A model generated the notes under the pieces. That model was not told the origin of the DNA. It worked only from the letters and a program-made list of their open reading frames with translations, and made no database searches. Shown here piece after piece: positions 23,840 to 55,474 of a DNA stretch of 64,000 nt; the first letter of the stretch is position 1; every line of letters starts with the position of its first letter. A program made the translations under genes and the position numbers. The DNA comes from Herpetosiphon aurantiacus DSM 785 (GTDB lineage Bacteria; Chloroflexota; Chloroflexia; Chloroflexales; Herpetosiphonaceae): assembly GCA_000018565.1 (NCBI GenBank), contig CP000875.1, positions 3,735,199 to 3,799,198 of the forward strand. The letters run 5' to 3'.

Positions 23840-24058
23840 AGCATAGAGCGATTGGGAGTTTCGATCCACGAAGGGCACAAAGGGAGATTAGGCTATGGGC
23901 TGATGGCTATCGGCTTTTGGAGTAGAGAATTTTTTGAACTGATTAAACCATTCCGATAGCCGATAGCCATAGTTCCTCTGCGCCTCTGCGTAAAATGTTC
24001 TATGTTCTATGTTCTATGTTCTCCCCTTCATCCCTCATCCTTCATCCTTCATCCTTGA
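23840..24058. repeat. Composite repeat cluster between convergent genes
   Basis: In order: CATAGAGCATAGAGCG, the 9-nt CGAAGGGCACAAAGG type, GGCTATG/GGCTATC words (about 23892-23920), the inverse CCGATAGCCGATAGCC (about 23950-23967), CCTCTGCGCCTCTGCG, three exact TCTATGT heptamers near 23998-24020, and four TTCATCC/CTCATCC heptamers near 24027-24055. Five word families sit in 219 bases between two convergent stop codons. Confidence 0.85.
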
Positions 24059-24059
24059 C

Positions 24060-25094
24060 CTAAGGGTTACATGGCAAATACTCGATACCACCATAGACTT
24101 GAGATTTTGACGACTGTCCATCGCTGCCTTGGGCCAAAATATAGTATTCGAATGCCCCAAAACGTTGCCCTGACATTTCGCGTTTCGCGAACAAGGTACG
24201 GCTCCAATTACCACCACCACCTTGCATCACCGTCGATTGCCAGCGGCTTGGCCCAGCGTGATAGTACAAGCTCACATCGCCTGCGGGGAAATTATCGACC
24301 GACACGCTGATCGTAATTTGGTCGGGCATGCCACAAGCAGTTTGTTCGGCAAAGGCACGTGCTGAAGCTACTGGCTCGCCAATAATTGGTGGCAGAATTG
24401 GCGCAGGTGTGTCGGTTGGCGTTGACGGCACAGGCGTATCGGTCGCGGTTGGTGGCACTGGTGTATCAGTTGGTTTTGGCGGCGCAGGCGTATCAGTTGG
24501 CGTTGGCAGCACAGGCGTGTTGGTGCTACGCACCGGCGTATTCGATGGCCGAACAGTTGTTGGTGCTGGTCGGGTTGTATTGCTTGGAATTGGTCGGGTT
24601 GGCGTTGCCGTGAAGGTTGGCGAACTCGTTGGCGTGGCAGTCGGAGTCGTGGTTGGCGTTGTGGTGGCACTCGGCACGCTGGTTGCACTGGGCAAGGCTG
24701 CTATTCGCAAGCTATTAATCTGACCAACTGCCACCTCAGCACTCGCCGGATCACTCCATTGGCCTTGGCTGCTTTGGGCACGCACCGCTAAACGATAGGC
24801 GGCGGCTTGGCTCGGCTGCCATTTGAGATTGGCATAGCCAAATTGTGAGCCGCGCATGGTTGGTTGTTGGGTTGCCACAACTTGGCCATTGACGCTTAAT
24901 TCAATCGTGCTGAGACCCATTGGATGATAGCCATGAGCCAGCACTTGAATCTCGCCAAGTTCCAAAGCGCTGCCAGCTAATGGTGCGTCGATCCACACTT
25001 GAGGCATAATTTGGGCTTGACTTGGTGCGGCTGCTGGTTGCTGTTGGCAAGCACCCAAGAGGCCAATTAACAAAATTCCAAGCCATCGTTTCAT
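24060..25094 (-). CDS. Thr/Pro-rich lipoprotein with Ig-like N-terminal domain
   Basis: A 344-residue lipoprotein: MKRWLGILLIGLLGAC with lipid-site Cys16. Residues about 30-120 form an Ig/FN3-like beta domain (APLAGSALELGEIQVLAHG... GSQFGYANLKWQPS pattern). Residues about 135-245 are a low-complexity TPTATPTSSPTF/PTDTP stretch, likely an extended stalk. The last 100 residues form another beta-rich domain with two Cys (ACGMPD and PCNP) that may bridge. The start codon overlaps the stop of the LysM-like gene by four bases (ATGA), so the two are translationally coupled. The function is probably cell-surface binding; the ligand is unknown. Confidence 0.8.
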   Translation of the reverse strand: MKRWLGILLIGLLGACQQQPAAAPSQAQIMPQVWIDAPLAGSALELGEIQVLAHGYHPMGLSTIELSVNGQVVATQQPTMRGSQFGYANLKWQPSQAAAYRLAVRAQSSQGQWSDPASAEVAVGQINSLRIAALPSATSVPSATTTPTTTPTATPTSSPTFTATPTRPIPSNTTRPAPTTVRPSNTPVRSTNTPVLPTPTDTPAPPKPTDTPVPPTATDTPVPSTPTDTPAPILPPIIGEPVASARAFAEQTACGMPDQITISVSVDNFPAGDVSLYYHAGPSRWQSTVMQGGGGNWSRTLFAKREMSGQRFGAFEYYILAQGSDGQSSKSQVYGGIEYLPCNP

Positions 25095-30333: not shown

Positions 30334-31098
30334 ATGCGTTTTGATATTTTGACCTTGTTTCCGGCCATGTTTACTGGCCCGCTGACCGAAAGCATTTTGA
30401 AACGGGCGGCTCAGGCTGAATTATTGCAATTTCACTTGCATGATATTCGCGATTACGCCACCGACAAGCATAAGATGGTCGATGATTCGCCAACTGGCGG
30501 CGGGGCAGGGATGGTGATGAAGCCTGGGCCGTTGGCGCTTTGCACTCAGACAGTACTGTCCGCCGATCCCAATCCAGCTCCGGTGGTGCTGATGACTCCC
30601 AGCGGACGTGTGTTTAACCAAACGATCGCCCGTGAATGGGCGCAATTGCCGCGTTTAGTGCTGGTGTGTGGTCATTACGAGGGCATCGATGAGCGCTATA
30701 TCGAACGTTATGTGACCGATCAAGTGTCGTTGGGCGATTTTGTACTGACTGGCGGTGAGCTGGCAGCAATGACTATTGTCGATGCAGTTGGCCGCCTCGT
30801 GCCCGAAGTGCTCGACCCTGAATCGCTGCTGCACGAAAGCCACGACGATGGCCTATTGGAATATCCACATTACACCAAGCCCGCCGAATGGAATGGGGTT
30901 GCCGTGCCGCCAATTTTGCTGAGTGGGCATCACGCCAAGATTGCCCAATGGCGACATGAGCAGCGTTTACGCCGCACCTTGGAGCGCCGCCCCGATATGT
31001 TGCGCCATGCCACGCTCTCCAAAAAAGATCGTCAGTTACTCAAAGAATGGGGCTGGGAAGAAAAATCAGAAGGCAAAAATCAAAAGGCAGAAGGCTAA
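30334..31098 (+). CDS. trmD: tRNA (guanine-37-N1)-methyltransferase
   Basis: SPOUT-class enzyme that makes m1G37 next to the anticodon and protects reading frame. Conserved parts: [42 protein letters not shown], and the knot region [14 protein letters not shown]. At 254 residues it is a little long: the last dozen residues ([12 protein letters not shown]) come from an array of AAAAATC/AGAAGGC heptamers that also contains the stop codon, so the natural end has been replaced or extended by a repeat. The gene is alone here, without rpsP or rplS. AGGA lies before the ATG. Confidence 0.96.
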
Positions 31099-31254
31099 GA
31101 TCTAAGAAGAGATAGCTATGAGCTATCGGAATTAATGAGCTACCACAAAAACGTTCCGATAGCCCATAGCTTTCATCCTTACAATCCTTCGTGCGCTTCG
31201 CGTCCTTCGTGGATCAAACCTGCTCCCCGACCCCCAACAACTGATCCCCAAGCC
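31058..31254. repeat. 7-nt repeat cluster overlapping the 3' end of trmD
   Basis: AAAAATC AGAAGGC AAAAATC AAAAGGC AGAAGGC TAAGATC occupies about 31060-31105 with a strict 7-nt step and includes the trmD stop. It is followed by GAGCTATCGGAATT (about 31126) facing TTCCGATAGCCCATAGC (about 31154-31171), then CTTCGTGCGCTTCGCG 9-nt words, then CCCCGACCCCCAACAACTGATCCCC. The region ends at the pnkp stop codon. Confidence 0.85.
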
Positions 31255-33819
31255 TTACAACCGTGGATCGATTGGCTCGCTTTCAAGCGCAAGCACCCCA
31301 AAAACACATTCATGCACACGGCGTAATGGCTCACGATTGACAAAACGATCGAGGGCTTCGAGGCCTAAGGCAAATTCGCGCAGCGCTAACGAACGTTTGC
31401 CACTCAGGCCGCGCTGGCGTAAGCGCTCCAAATTTTCGGGCAAATCGTATTCAGGGCCATAAATGATCCGCAGATATTCAGCGCCACGACATTTAATTGC
31501 TGGTTGTACGATGCCGCGCGAATTCTGCACAACCCATTGTTTGGGCTTGATGACGATGCCTTCGCCACCCGCCGCTGTGAGTTTTTGCCACCATGCAATT
31601 GTTTGCTCAACGCTGGCTTGATCGTGCAAATCGACTAGGCGATAGGGTGTGGCTACCAATAAACGTGGCTCGGCCTCGGCCAAGGCTGCCAAAGTTTGCA
31701 TATGCCACTCGTGGTCACGATCATACAATGGGCGTTGTTCACAAGCTAAAAGATGAAACGGCGCTAACCGCAAATCATCGAGGCTGCGGACTGGCCAGCA
31801 ATAGTGTTGGTAGGCCTCAACATAGCCTTGCACCGCCTGTTGGCGCAATTGAGTATGGGCAATCAGCGCTTGCAACTCAACCGATTCGGGCAGGCGCGTG
31901 ACCGTTTGGCGCAACGCGGCTTGGGCGGCGCTCATGCTAGCGGTTGCGGCAGCTCCGACGGGCGCATATTGATTTTGAATCAAATCATGCGCTTTGGCCG
32001 ACCACGGCAGCAGTTCACAATCTAAGGCAAACCAGCCTGAATCGAAGCTTTCCCACCAATTAAGCTTACTAATTGCTTGTTGCAGCCGTTGCAAAAAGGC
32101 CGTTTCAAGCTCAGGATCGCTAAAGAAGCGCCGCCCAGTACGGGTGTAGCAAACGCCAATTTGCTCGCCAGTTACGCCAAAGCGCTCACGAGCAACCTCG
32201 CTATCGCGGCAGATAATCACAATCGCCCGCGAACCCATATGCTTAGCTTCGCACACAACTTCATTAACCCCCGCCCGCCGATAATATTCTAAGGCTTCGG
32301 CAGGATGCTCCAAGAAACTGCCAAGTTGGCTAGTTTCAGAGGGCGACATCGTTGGTGGTAAGTAGATCAGCCATTGTGGCTCGATAGCAAAACGGCTGAT
32401 CACTTCCAATGCGGCGCTGGTTTGTTCTTCGCGCAGGTTGATTTGGCTGATCAAGCTGGTGCTAATTTGCAATTTGCCTTGAAAATCGCTCAAATCGAGC
32501 ACTTGATCATGCGCTTGTTGAGCTGAAAGTTGGGTTGCATTCATTTCCAAAGGCCGTTTGGGAATGGCATATTGGGCAAAGGCTGGCACTCGCACAAACT
32601 CACGCTCGGGATAACGCAGCGCGGTGAGTGCTCCGCCAAAGGCACAGCCAGTATCAATATCAACCGTGTTGTTCAGCCATTCGGGCTGGGGAATTGGCGT
32701 ATGGCCATAAACAACCAAACCCTCGCCGCGATATTCTTTGGCCCAGGGGTAGCGCACGGGCAAGCCAAACTCATCGGTTTCGCCCGTAGTTTCGCCATAT
32801 AAGGCAAATTCGCGCACGCGCTTCGACATCCGCCCTTGTAACTCTTGTTTCATGCCAGCATGGGCTACCACCAACTTTCCATCATCAAAAATTAAATGAC
32901 TGACCATACCTTCGATAAAATGGCGCACTGCTTGGCGAAAAGCCTCATCAGTTTCAGCCAACGCTTGCATCGTTTCGGCCAGGCCATGAGTTTGTTTGAC
33001 TTTACGTCCAGCCAAAGCCCGCGCTAATTTATCGTCGTGGTTACCTGGCACGCACAAGGCTGCGCCGGTTTCAACCATACTCATCACCAAGCGCAACACG
33101 CCAACTGAATCTGGCCCGCGATCAACTAAATCGCCGACGAACACTGCGCGGCGGCCAGCAGGCGGCGTAACCGTAAAGCCATAATTGTGGCCTGGCGTGA
33201 GATTAATGCTATAACCCAATTCCAGCAGCAAGCGCTCAAGTTCAGGGTAACAGCCATGCACATCGCCAATAATATCGAAAGGGCCATGCTCAACTTTACG
33301 GTTGCTCCAAGCGCGTTGGCGCACAATTTCAACGCTATCAACCTGCTCAGGCGTAACGCTATGCACCACCCGAAAGCCTTCATCGTGCAGCGTGCGCAGC
33401 GAACGCCGCAAATTATCGATTTGGCGCTTGACCACAAAATCGCCAAAATCGCGATTGGGGCGACCTAAATTGCGCTCCAAACAGACGCGTTCAGGCGTGT
33501 GCAGCACAATCGCCACGGGCCAGACGTGATAATGCCGCGCCAAGGCTAACAACGGTTTCCGTGCTTCGGCCTGCACATTGGTCGCATCGATCACAGTCAA
33601 ACGGCCCAAGGCTAGGCGCTTGGCAGCAATTGTATACACTAAATCAAAGGCATCAGCTGAGACCGATTGATCAGTTTCATCATCGGTGAGCATTGCGCGA
33701 CAGGCATCGGACGAAATAATTTCGGTGGGCTTGAAATAGCGCTGCGCAAAGGTCGATTTGCCTGAGCCAGAAGCCCCAACCAATACCACCAACGACAATT
33801 CAGGTATTCCTAATTCCAT
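31255..33819 (-). CDS. pnkp: Polynucleotide kinase-phosphatase-ligase of the Pnkp RNA-repair system
   Basis: An 854-residue three-domain RNA end-healing and sealing enzyme. Residues 1-170: P-loop 5'-OH kinase (GASGSGKST, 15-23; SSD38). Residues about 178-420: calcineurin-type 2',3'-phosphatase (GDVHG 185-189, GDLVDRG 229-235, GNHDD 259-263, YGHTP 371-375). Residues about 430-854: adenylyltransferase/ligase with nucleophile K526 in EAKHMGS, then GGEGIVIKPK at 751-760. This order matches Clostridium thermocellum Pnkp. In known systems Pnkp seals ribotoxin-cleaved tRNA with Hen1. Here it follows the nucleotidyltransferase gene by 12 bases, and hen1 is just upstream in the same run. Confidence 0.95.
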   Translation of the reverse strand: MELGIPELSLVVLVGASGSGKSTFAQRYFKPTEIISSDACRAMLTDDETDQSVSADAFDLVYTIAAKRLALGRLTVIDATNVQAEARKPLLALARHYHVWPVAIVLHTPERVCLERNLGRPNRDFGDFVVKRQIDNLRRSLRTLHDEGFRVVHSVTPEQVDSVEIVRQRAWSNRKVEHGPFDIIGDVHGCYPELERLLLELGYSINLTPGHNYGFTVTPPAGRRAVFVGDLVDRGPDSVGVLRLVMSMVETGAALCVPGNHDDKLARALAGRKVKQTHGLAETMQALAETDEAFRQAVRHFIEGMVSHLIFDDGKLVVAHAGMKQELQGRMSKRVREFALYGETTGETDEFGLPVRYPWAKEYRGEGLVVYGHTPIPQPEWLNNTVDIDTGCAFGGALTALRYPEREFVRVPAFAQYAIPKRPLEMNATQLSAQQAHDQVLDLSDFQGKLQISTSLISQINLREEQTSAALEVISRFAIEPQWLIYLPPTMSPSETSQLGSFLEHPAEALEYYRRAGVNEVVCEAKHMGSRAIVIICRDSEVARERFGVTGEQIGVCYTRTGRRFFSDPELETAFLQRLQQAISKLNWWESFDSGWFALDCELLPWSAKAHDLIQNQYAPVGAAATASMSAAQAALRQTVTRLPESVELQALIAHTQLRQQAVQGYVEAYQHYCWPVRSLDDLRLAPFHLLACEQRPLYDRDHEWHMQTLAALAEAEPRLLVATPYRLVDLHDQASVEQTIAWWQKLTAAGGEGIVIKPKQWVVQNSRGIVQPAIKCRGAEYLRIIYGPEYDLPENLERLRQRGLSGKRSLALREFALGLEALDRFVNREPLRRVHECVFGVLALESEPIDPRL

Positions 33820-52117: not shown

Positions 52118-52458
52118 AGTAATTCACCACCCTTCCGTCCCGCCTCAAGGCGGGAGACGCAGGGGGTTTTCATCCCCCTGCACCCCCAAATGTTTATGTT
52201 GTGGATTATTTCTGTTGATTCTATTACCCCAACTCCTAGCCTTCGCGTTCTTCATGCTCTTCGCGGTTTCAGTGCTTAATTCGTTTTCTGGATTATTCCT
52301 ATTGATTCTATTACCCCAACCCCCAGCCTTCGCGTTCTTCGTGCGCTTCGCGGTTTCAGTGCTCCCGATCTCCATCCCAAACTAGCTCATTTATGCTAAA
52401 AAGCCCAATTTATGCTACAATAGCAGGGCAGAATGTGTATCTACGAGGAGCCTGAGCA
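52118..52458. repeat. Gap with a two-hairpin element and a 74-bp tandem duplication
   Basis: At about 52124-52187 is a copy of the 8463-8525 element, in reverse. At 52203-52276 and 52290-52363 are two direct copies of a 74-base unit (starting GGATTATT, ending TTTCAGTGCT) with about six differences; each holds 9-nt words such as TTCGCGTTCTTCGTGCGCTT. No gene is seen. The end of the gap has TACAAT (52416-52421) as a possible -10 for mutL. Confidence 0.85.
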
Positions 52459-54354: not shown

Positions 54355-54607
54355 GGATCAGGGATCGGTTGTTAGGGGCTGGGGATCAGGATTTAACACA
54401 GAGGCACAGAGACGATTTAAGGGTTAGGGGCCAGCGATCAGGACTCAGGATTGACGCTTGGGTTCGGTAATGCCAATCTGACCCCTCGCCCCTGAATCCT
54501 AACCCCTCACCCCTTTGTGCTCTTCGTGTCCTTCGTGGTTAAAAAACTAAACTCCAATAACACTCAAGATCATTTTATGCTCTATGTTCTATGCTCTATG
54601 TTCTTCA
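54355..54607. repeat. Large composite 7-nt repeat cluster after mutL
   Basis: AGGGATC AGGGATC GGTTGTT AGGGGCT GGGGATC AGGATTT (from about 54354) steps by seven. Then AACACAGAGGCACAGAG, GGTTAGGGGCCAGCGATCAGG, facing CTGACCCCTCGCCCCTGAATCC, then CTTCGTGTCCTTCGTGG, and finally CTCTATGTTCTATG words near 54577-54602. No gene is present. Confidence 0.85.
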
Positions 54608-55474
54608 CTAGATTTGCCAAATAAACAAAGCGAGGGTTGCTAAACTAATGGCGATGATTTTGCGGGCAGTCAATTGTTCGCGGAACAATGGTACGGCAAT
54701 AATCGCAGTAATTGGCGTTTTGAGATTAATTGCTAGCAGCACAAATGGCAGCGTTGCCGCGTCGGACATGGCTTGGGCATGCATCATCGCCACAAAACCA
54801 CCAAAGGTGATCAAACCAACCACCGCGCCCCAACCCCATTCGTGGCGGCGCACTTGCGGCGTAAGGTGCAAGCCAGGAATCACCCCAGCCGCAAAATCAA
54901 CAAACATCAACAAGCCAATTTGTGCCCCAAAATTACGGGCATAGGTCACAGCAGCAAAACTTGAAACCACCAACAAGCCTAAACAAACATAGGTGGCGTT
55001 GCTCAGTTTCTCGCTACCTTTAACTTGAGCACCAATGAGCACGGCGACTGCGGTTAATACACACGCCAATAGATTGCCCAGCGTAGGATTGCCAGCCTGC
55101 GAGGGTAAATTGATCGTGACCGAGCCAATTTGCAGCATATTCCATGCGGCGGGCAAGAGCAAAATAATCACCCCAGCTACCACTAGATCTAAATTGCTGA
55201 TCGCAAAAACCAACGATGCAGGCGAATGCTCCAAGGCTTTGGCGCGGGCAATCGTGGCAAAATAAAAGGTCACGCCTGCCAAAAAGGCCAATATCGCCGC
55301 AGGCCACGACCATGATTCGCCGCTGGCGATAAAATAAATAAGCCCACAAATTGTTGCAATCACGCTTGAAGCATAAACCATCTGGGCCGGACGTGTCCGA
55401 CTAGCAAGCGCCTTGAAGAGCAGTGACAATCCCGAATAGGCCACTACTGCCAACGCTGTTAATCCAAAAACCAT
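54608..55474 (-). CDS. DMT-superfamily (EamA-like) transporter
   Basis: A 288-residue membrane protein with about ten hydrophobic helices in two similar halves, the EamA/DMT plan of small-metabolite exporters. Start ATG 55474 (MVFGLTALAVVAYSGLSLLF) has AAGGTGG upstream. A longer frame to 55567 would begin before a strong terminator and read through it, so it is rejected. The family end signature KTPITAIIAVPLFREQLTARKIIAI is clear (here in parts). The substrate is unknown. It is a separate unit downstream of the liv-cupin terminator. Confidence 0.85.
   Translation of the reverse strand: MVFGLTALAVVAYSGLSLLFKALASRTRPAQMVYASSVIATICGLIYFIASGESWSWPAAILAFLAGVTFYFATIARAKALEHSPASLVFAISNLDLVVAGVIILLLPAAWNMLQIGSVTINLPSQAGNPTLGNLLACVLTAVAVLIGAQVKGSEKLSNATYVCLGLLVVSSFAAVTYARNFGAQIGLLMFVDFAAGVIPGLHLTPQVRRHEWGWGAVVGLITFGGFVAMMHAQAMSDAATLPFVLLAINLKTPITAIIAVPLFREQLTARKIIAISLATLALFIWQI

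What the first reader, a model, noticed from the sequence alone, without database searches (positions are those of the whole stretch)
31058..31105. Heptamer array has become the C-terminus of trmD
The last dozen codons of trmD and its stop lie in an AAAAATC/AGAAGGC array. The array gives a Lys/Glu-rich tail that other TrmD proteins do not have. It shows that the repeats can enter the ends of essential genes and supply a new stop codon.
Basis: seen in the sequence. Interest (0 to 1): 0.55.

Follow-up and report, generated by a model that had tools for sequence, protein, structure and literature searches.

The report
Seven-base repeats encode TrmD's tail
In the soil predator Herpetosiphon, seven-base repeats that flank genes have run into the end of the tRNA-methylase gene trmD and now encode its last dozen amino acids, one case of a genome-wide habit in which such repeats start at gene edges and point outward.

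Summary
In Herpetosiphon aurantiacus, trmD (30334-31098) ends in five heptamers, AAAAATC-AGAAGGC-AAAAATC-AAAAGGC-AGAAGGC (31061-31095). TAA (31096-31098) follows directly, at the array's edge rather than inside a unit. In all six Herpetosiphon genomes held, the conserved WGW is followed by heptamer-encoded residues: five or two full units of this family, or another heptamer (ATGAAGG) whose own TGA is the stop. Lengths run 246-254 aa. None of 25 TrmD ends examined outside the genus holds such units. Three further H. aurantiacus genes found have SQKAE/QKSEG-type tails, and other heptamers give recurrent MKDEG and IEHR[AT]-like tails.

The wider pattern is stronger. Heptamer arrays start at gene edges and their purine-rich strand points away from the gene, at 3' and 5' ends alike (p about 1e-7 in samples of each of two genomes). 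Spacers with two arrays of trmD's family are convergent (9 of 9). This geometry is already published for G-rich heptamers in Xanthomonas and Nostoc, so the kind is known. New here: it also holds for A-rich units without G-runs, in another phylum, with translated tails. The TrmD tail is predicted disordered and probably neutral. How the arrays form remains open.

The parts
30334..31098 (+). trmD, tRNA (guanine37-N1)-methyltransferase, 254 aa
31048..31059 (+). last codons before the array: conserved WGW plus one Glu
   Evidence: alignment of 31 TrmD ends; G240 and W241 nearly invariant in 16 TrmDs
31061..31095 (+). five tandem heptamers AAAAATC AGAAGGC AAAAATC AAAAGGC AGAAGGC, encoding the tail
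31096..31098 (+). TAA stop codon at the outer edge of the array
31111..31174 (.). hairpin-capable inverted repeat (21-nt arms, 22 nt between) in the trmD/PNKP spacer
31255..33819 (-). convergent neighbour, polynucleotide kinase-phosphatase-ligase (PNKP_ligase, AAA_33, Metallophos)
23995..24056 (-). comparison arrays in the window: AGAACAT x4 and ATGA[AG]GG x4.6, ending 3 bp from the stop of the minus-strand gene at 24060; purine strand points away from the gene
54576..54604 (-). comparison array AGAACAT/AGAGCAT, 3 bp from the stop of the minus-strand gene at 54608

Best explanation
Herpetosiphon spacers carry purine-rich heptamer arrays that begin at the functional edge of a gene (stop codon, or the start/ribosome-site region) and point outward. 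At the trmD 3' end such an array starts right after the conserved WGW (shown). The purine strand of this unit family contains no stop codon in any frame (shown), so translation runs through the array to the first stop at or beyond its edge (follows from the sequence). The result is a short Lys/Glu/Gly/Ser tail that is disordered in the model (shown by prediction). Tail length and sequence change as units are gained, lost or exchanged, most likely by slipped-strand replication and unit exchange (inferred). The tail persists because TrmD tolerates almost anything after its last helix (inferred from its variability in relatives). What makes the arrays start at gene edges and point outward is not explained by slippage and stays open.
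For: Six of six Herpetosiphon trmD genes have heptamers directly after WGW or one codon later: five F1 units in G000, G006 and G005 (254 aa), two full F1 units in G003 (249 aa) and G002 (247 aa), ATGAAGG units in G004 (246 aa). 25 of 25 examined TrmD ends outside the genus hold no two-unit run of the three unit families searched for (ends listed). Model: no secondary structure after residue 238, pLDDT below 50 at 247-254. Zero of 512 F1 unit triples contain a stop in any frame. Three more genes with F1 tails: a LysR regulator, a family-2 glycosyltransferase and an ABC ATPase. F2 and F3 tails MKDEG, IEHRT, IEHRA, IEQRT, IEQRA in other genes. 29 of 33 F1 arrays lying behind a same-strand gene, trmD's included, start within 12 bp of its stop or inside the CDS. 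Copy number differs at an orthologous spacer: longest ATGA[AGT]GG run 15 units in G002, 16 in G003, 4 in G000, 2 in G006 and G004, none in G005.
Against: Adjacent F1 units are not more often identical than expected (34 of 174 pairs, expected 35), whereas simple slippage predicts an excess; units two apart are (29 of 94, expected 19). The 35-nt array is identical in G000 and G006 although three genes here, trmD among them, differ by about 7% at nucleotide level, so turnover here is slow or something holds it. In G004 a different heptamer family sits between flanks shared with G006 (by eye), which slippage alone does not produce. Neutrality of the tail was not tested.
Confidence: 0.72

Rival explanations
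1. The arrays are laid down by extension of 3' ends: at a chromosome break each 3' strand end is extended with purine-rich heptamers by a repeat-adding polymerase, and the capped ends are then joined. This directly gives outward-pointing purine strands on both sides of a spacer.
For: Outward rule at 5' and 3' gene ends alike; 9 of 9 double-array spacers convergent; trmD's array is kept while the DNA just beyond it (from the 5th base after the last unit) differs between sister species; bacterial reverse transcriptases that add short tandem repeats exist (DRT10, PMC12632851, passages); all six Herpetosiphon carry a full-length RT of PADLOC group UG37.
Against: I know of no such chromosomal activity (recalled; not searched for beyond). 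G008 and G074 have full-length UG37 but no F1 arrays, and G018, G031, G063 and G072 have 1-11 F1 matches without it. No template-like RNA was seen by eye in the spacer behind UG37 in G000 and G006; the G002 one was not recovered. G004 and G006 share DNA beyond the array but differ in the array.
Confidence: 0.08
2. The arrays are kept by selection as transcription insulators: read in the direction that enters a gene, each array is pyrimidine-rich, like a Rho loading site, and stops read-through or antisense transcripts at gene edges.
For: Orientation fits any transcript about to leave a spacer; Rho RNA-binding domain present in 9 of 9 genomes of the family.
Against: Several arrays at 5' ends abut the start or ribosome-site region (14 of 38 begin within 23 bp of the called start or overlap it) and would lie in that gene's own leader. 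Three genera of the same family have Rho but 0 or 1 F1 matches.
Confidence: 0.12
3. The tail came by insertion of a small mobile element (RU/MITE-like) carrying the heptamers, as described for enterobacterial RU elements that extend C-termini.
For: Precedent in PMC2759123 (passages); arrays occur as convergent pairs that resemble terminal inverted repeats.
Against: DNA between convergent pairs looks different from place to place by eye, and unit order and number vary. No target duplication was searched for.
Confidence: 0.1
4. The Lys/Glu tail is a native TrmD feature selected for tRNA binding and only resembles the array.
For: TrmD ends are variable and some relatives have acidic tails of similar length.
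Against: The tail DNA follows the unit pattern seen in non-coding arrays; it is replaced by another heptamer in G004; none of the 25 examined relatives outside the genus has it.
Confidence: 0.04

Closest known systems
GGGAATC / GGGGA(C/T)T heptamer repeats of Xanthomonas and Nostoc (PMC4692102; sections 10, 11 and 16 read)
   Different: Here several A/G-rich families coexist in one genome; the trmD family has no run of three G, so G-quadruplexes cannot be its cause; units are mixed within arrays; translated C-terminal tails and stops are documented gene by gene.
Enterobacterial RU small mobile sequences fused to gene ends (PMC2759123; passages)
   Same: A repeat abolishes the normal stop, extends the C-terminus past the conserved domain, and supplies residues and a stop.
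   Different: RU elements are 103-168 bp single units with inverted ends; these are tandem heptamers (2-12 units in those seen here) with no common inner element noticed.
TAACTGA heptamer repeats of Beggiatoaceae and cyanobacteria (PMC4679880; passages)
   Same: Direct heptamer repeats with a patchy distribution across phyla.
   Different: One fixed heptamer; in the Beggiatoaceae genome studied mostly just upstream of start codons.
Cyanobacterial STRR heptamers (recalled; no STRR paper was read)
   Same: Tandem heptamers in filamentous bacteria.
   Different: Unit sequences and geometry were not compared here.

Membership tests
Gene-flanking heptamer repeats of the Xanthomonas/Nostoc kind | unit length 7, in excess over neighbouring periods | tested here: met
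   864 kb of G000: 29 arrays at period 7, 0 at 5 and 8, 6 at 6, 22 at 9; Markov control 0 at period 7. 400 kb of G002: 50 at period 7, 0-4 at 5, 6, 8 and 10, 25 at 9 (no shuffled control there).
Gene-flanking heptamer repeats of the Xanthomonas/Nostoc kind | nearer to the ORF on the 5' side of the repeat | tested here: met
   67 of 71 F1 arrays, p 8.7e-16; 2 of 73 dropped. All families: 46 against 7 in G000 (4 of 57 dropped as ambiguous; trmD's own array is below the threshold used and not among them) and 55 against 11 in G002 (4 of 70 dropped).
Gene-flanking heptamer repeats of the Xanthomonas/Nostoc kind | convergent (+/-) pairs in one spacer | tested here: met
   9 of 9 spacers with two F1 arrays.
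Gene-flanking heptamer repeats of the Xanthomonas/Nostoc kind | G-rich units able to form G-quadruplexes | tested here: not met
   The eight F1 units hold at most two adjacent G (units listed). Other families in the genome (AGGGGTC type) do hold G-runs. So not a member of the G-quadruplex repeats proper; it shares their geometry.
TrmD | full-length match to TIGR00088 / NF000648 above cut-off | tested here: met
   287 and 306 bits against cut-offs 195 and 220; residues 1-227 and 1-223 of 254.
Small mobile element (RU/MITE) | conserved whole element with inverted ends and target duplication | tested here: inconclusive
   Convergent array pairs seen, but no common inner sequence by eye; target duplications not searched.
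Phase-variable contingency repeat | copy-number change between close isolates switching expression | not testable with these tools
   Only one genome per species is held; between species the unit number differs and the frame stays open in all six.
Telomerase-like repeat addition (DRT10/UG17) | UG17 RT with SLATT partner and template RNA | tested here: not met
   The conserved Herpetosiphon RT is UG37 (1231 bits); its UG17 score is 60.7 bits. The neighbouring ORFs of 150 aa or more in G000 read as unrelated to a SLATT protein by eye only. G000's other RTs were not classified.

The most novel reading that the evidence does not exclude
The outward geometry, now seen with G-rich units in Proteobacteria and Cyanobacteria (published) and A-rich units in Chloroflexota (here), is the footprint of a general bacterial process that extends 3' DNA ends with purine-rich heptamers, telomerase-fashion, when breaks between genes are healed. 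On that reading arrays are end caps, spacers are healed junctions, and gene tails such as TrmD's are caps laid inside the old stop codon.
Probability: 0.06. Interest if true: 0.9.

Novelty: new variant of a known kind. Interest (0 to 1): 0.5.

Why it matters
It gives a clear, checkable case of non-coding tandem repeats becoming protein in a housekeeping enzyme, with a few similar tails (QKAEG-like, MKDEG, IEHR[AT]-like) recurring on unrelated proteins. More generally, finding the published heptamer geometry with units that have no G-runs, in another phylum, speaks against quadruplexes as the common cause and turns 'why do bacterial heptamers start at gene edges and point outward' into a question that can be tested by comparing orthologous spacers.

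Tried and rejected
Slippage as sole origin: adjacent F1 units are not more alike than chance, only units two apart. Transcription-sense rule: rejected, since arrays at gene 5' ends are purine-rich on the antisense strand (19 outward against 2 inward in G000, summed by me from the table; 22 against 4 in G002). Inversion between arrays as the cause of the trmD rearrangement: the partner of trmD differs (PNKP in G000, G005, G003, G002; STAS gene in G006, G004) and the arrangement does not follow the tree (FastTree support 0.98; the IQ-TREE run printed nothing), but the far ends do not match a single inversion, so it was left as an observation. UG37 reverse transcriptase as the array maker: not tied to F1 arrays. 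F1 arrays elsewhere: in the class search 15 of 81 genomes matched, one of them (G023) with as many matches to the reversed control pattern. My first F1 pattern was mis-specified and found nothing. Purine profile averaged over all spacers showed no clear signal. Gene calls are from my own codon-score caller, not from annotation, and the G002 replication used the same caller with codon scores trained on G000.

Full report
What is there. The window lies in a genome whose chromosome (contig C1) is 6,346,587 bases, the length given for Herpetosiphon aurantiacus 114-95T in PMC3368417 (passages). trmD (30334-31098) is an ordinary TrmD up to its last helix. Its end reads tgg gaa g|AAAAATC AGAAGGC AAAAATC AAAAGGC AGAAGGC| taa: five exact heptamers of the form A[AG]AA[AG][TG]C (called F1 here) at 31061-31095, then TAA. 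No other run of three or more such units is in the window, and 200 Markov resamples gave none (18 runs of two). A predicted structure has no secondary structure after residue 238 and pLDDT below 50 at 247-254 (only 16 sequences in its alignment, mean pLDDT 73, and two inner segments are also below 50).

TrmD in relatives. Of 9 genomes of the family, 8 gave a TrmD. In all six Herpetosiphon the conserved WGW is followed by heptamers: G000 and G006 [14 protein letters not shown]005 QEKAEGKSQKSEG, G003 QEKAEGRK, G002 QEKSES, G004 MKDEG. Five, five, five, two and two full F1 units go with 254, 254, 254, 249 and 247 aa; G004 has ATGAAGG units, whose own TGA is the stop, and 246 aa. The two-unit cases would be weak alone (two units do arise by chance); it is their place, directly after WGW as in the sisters, that ties them in. 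In a class-wide search 78 of 81 genomes had TrmD. I examined 25 TrmD ends outside the genus (24 of the 72 non-Herpetosiphon genomes matched there, those with returned loci, plus G001). Their tails after the GW position vary freely, and none of the 25 holds a two-unit run of the F1, ATGA[AG]GG or AGA[AG]CAT families. The end of TrmD is thus a tolerant site, and the array entered before the six species split, or repeatedly.

Other genes. I examined 73 F1 arrays of three or more units in H. aurantiacus: those in an 864-kb sample (40 evenly spaced 20-kb stretches plus the window) and in 38 regions chosen from the G000 matches listed (the list ends at 4.06 Mb; 179 matches in all). Of these, 33 lie behind a same-strand gene. 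29 of the 33 start within 12 bp of its stop or inside the CDS, and four are inside: trmD itself, a LysR regulator (...SQKAEVKRQKS), a family-2 glycosyltransferase (...SQKSKVKSQKAETE) and an ABC ATPase (...[13 protein letters not shown]). In the 864-kb sample three of 643 called genes end in AGA[AG]CAT arrays as NIEHRT, AIEHRA and SIEQRT. In 400 kb of G002, among 320 genes, one ends LIEQRA, one ends DEQGA in a related array, and one ends SMKDEG from ATGAAGG (arrays at gene 5' ends in the same list are left out here, one gene in G000 and two in G002). F1 has no stop in any frame (0 of 512 triples), which lets a gene run through; AGAACAT and ATGAAGG carry stops in every frame.

The wider rule. 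Period 7 (and 9) stands far above most other periods, mostly in spacers; multiples of 7 and coding periods of 12 also appear. F1 matches number 49-318 in each of the six Herpetosiphon genomes and 0, 1 and 0 in the other three genomes of the family, with 0 for the reversed pattern. Scoring all heptamer arrays by nearest spacer edge and purine-rich strand gives left/plus 26, left/minus 4, right/plus 3, right/minus 20 in G000 (p 1.2e-7; 4 of 57 dropped as ambiguous), and 25, 5, 6, 30 in G002 (p 6.5e-8; 4 of 70 dropped). The rule holds at gene starts (19 against 2, summed; 22 against 4) and gene ends (27 against 5; 33 against 7), so it is not a matter of transcription sense. For F1 alone 67 of 71 are nearer the 5'-side edge (2 of 73 dropped), and 9 of 9 spacers with two arrays are convergent. 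Caveats: genes were called by my own codon-score script, also in the replication; the F1 set was partly chosen by pattern.

What is known. PMC4692102 (sections 10, 11, 16; [quoted passage not shown] The Herpetosiphon units share the geometry but F1 has no G-run. PMC2759123 (passages) shows other small repeats replacing a stop and extending C-termini. The H. aurantiacus genome paper, searched for 'repeat', had two occurrences; the one displayed counts CRISPR repeats, and a search for Herpetosiphon with heptamer gave two papers whose titles and abstracts, as listed, concern other matters. Within those searches (searches were the others on repeats, seen as listings apart from the papers named) I saw no description of the Herpetosiphon arrays; subscription papers were not searchable.

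Mechanism. Shown: array position, open frame through it, variation across species, absence outside the genus in the sample, recurrence in other genes, outward rule. Inferred: slippage and unit exchange change the array; the tail is neutral. Unexplained: why arrays begin at gene edges and point outward, how one family replaces another between kept flanks (G004 against G006), and why adjacent units are no more alike than chance. The DNA beyond the trmD array differs between G000 and G006 from the fifth base after the last unit, while gene and array are kept, so a rearrangement boundary lies at the array's outer edge. That fits, but does not show, a model in which arrays cap healed ends.

Noticed in passing
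L280:1240-3115 (G003:C4:264000-268500): In species G003 two AT-rich ORFs matching the N- and C-terminal parts of AbiA reverse transcriptase (a broken defence gene) lie between trmD's array and the PNKP gene.
   Followed up: partly
G000:C1:3377948-3380284 (L278:2425-4785): A full-length UG37-group reverse transcriptase is present in all six Herpetosiphon genomes; in G000 it sits beside an ORF that reads like hisG (by eye). Function unknown; also in G008 and G074.
   Followed up: partly
trmD 3' neighbourhood in six species (L017-L021, L113-L115): The gene after trmD is PNKP in G000, G005, G003 (with an insertion between) and G002 and a STAS-domain gene in G006, G004, which conflicts with the gene tree: a recurrent or reversed rearrangement at the array's edge.
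   Followed up: partly
window 31111-31174 and 23903-23970: Palindromic dispersed element with CTATCGG-type arms (GGCTATCGGAA...TTCCGATAGCC), also seen by eye in G006 beside PNKP in the other orientation.
   Followed up: no
864-kb G000 sample; G002 C1:1-400000: A second excess of repeats at period 9 (22 and 25 arrays; 18 of the 22 mostly intergenic), apparently of the CTTCGTGTC/GAAGGACAC kind.
   Followed up: no
window 52202-52363: 87-bp tandem duplication (1.9 copies, 92% match) in a spacer rich in short repeats.
   Followed up: no
window 24400-24518: 27-bp in-frame coding repeat, 4.4 copies, within the minus-strand gene 24060-25094.
   Followed up: no
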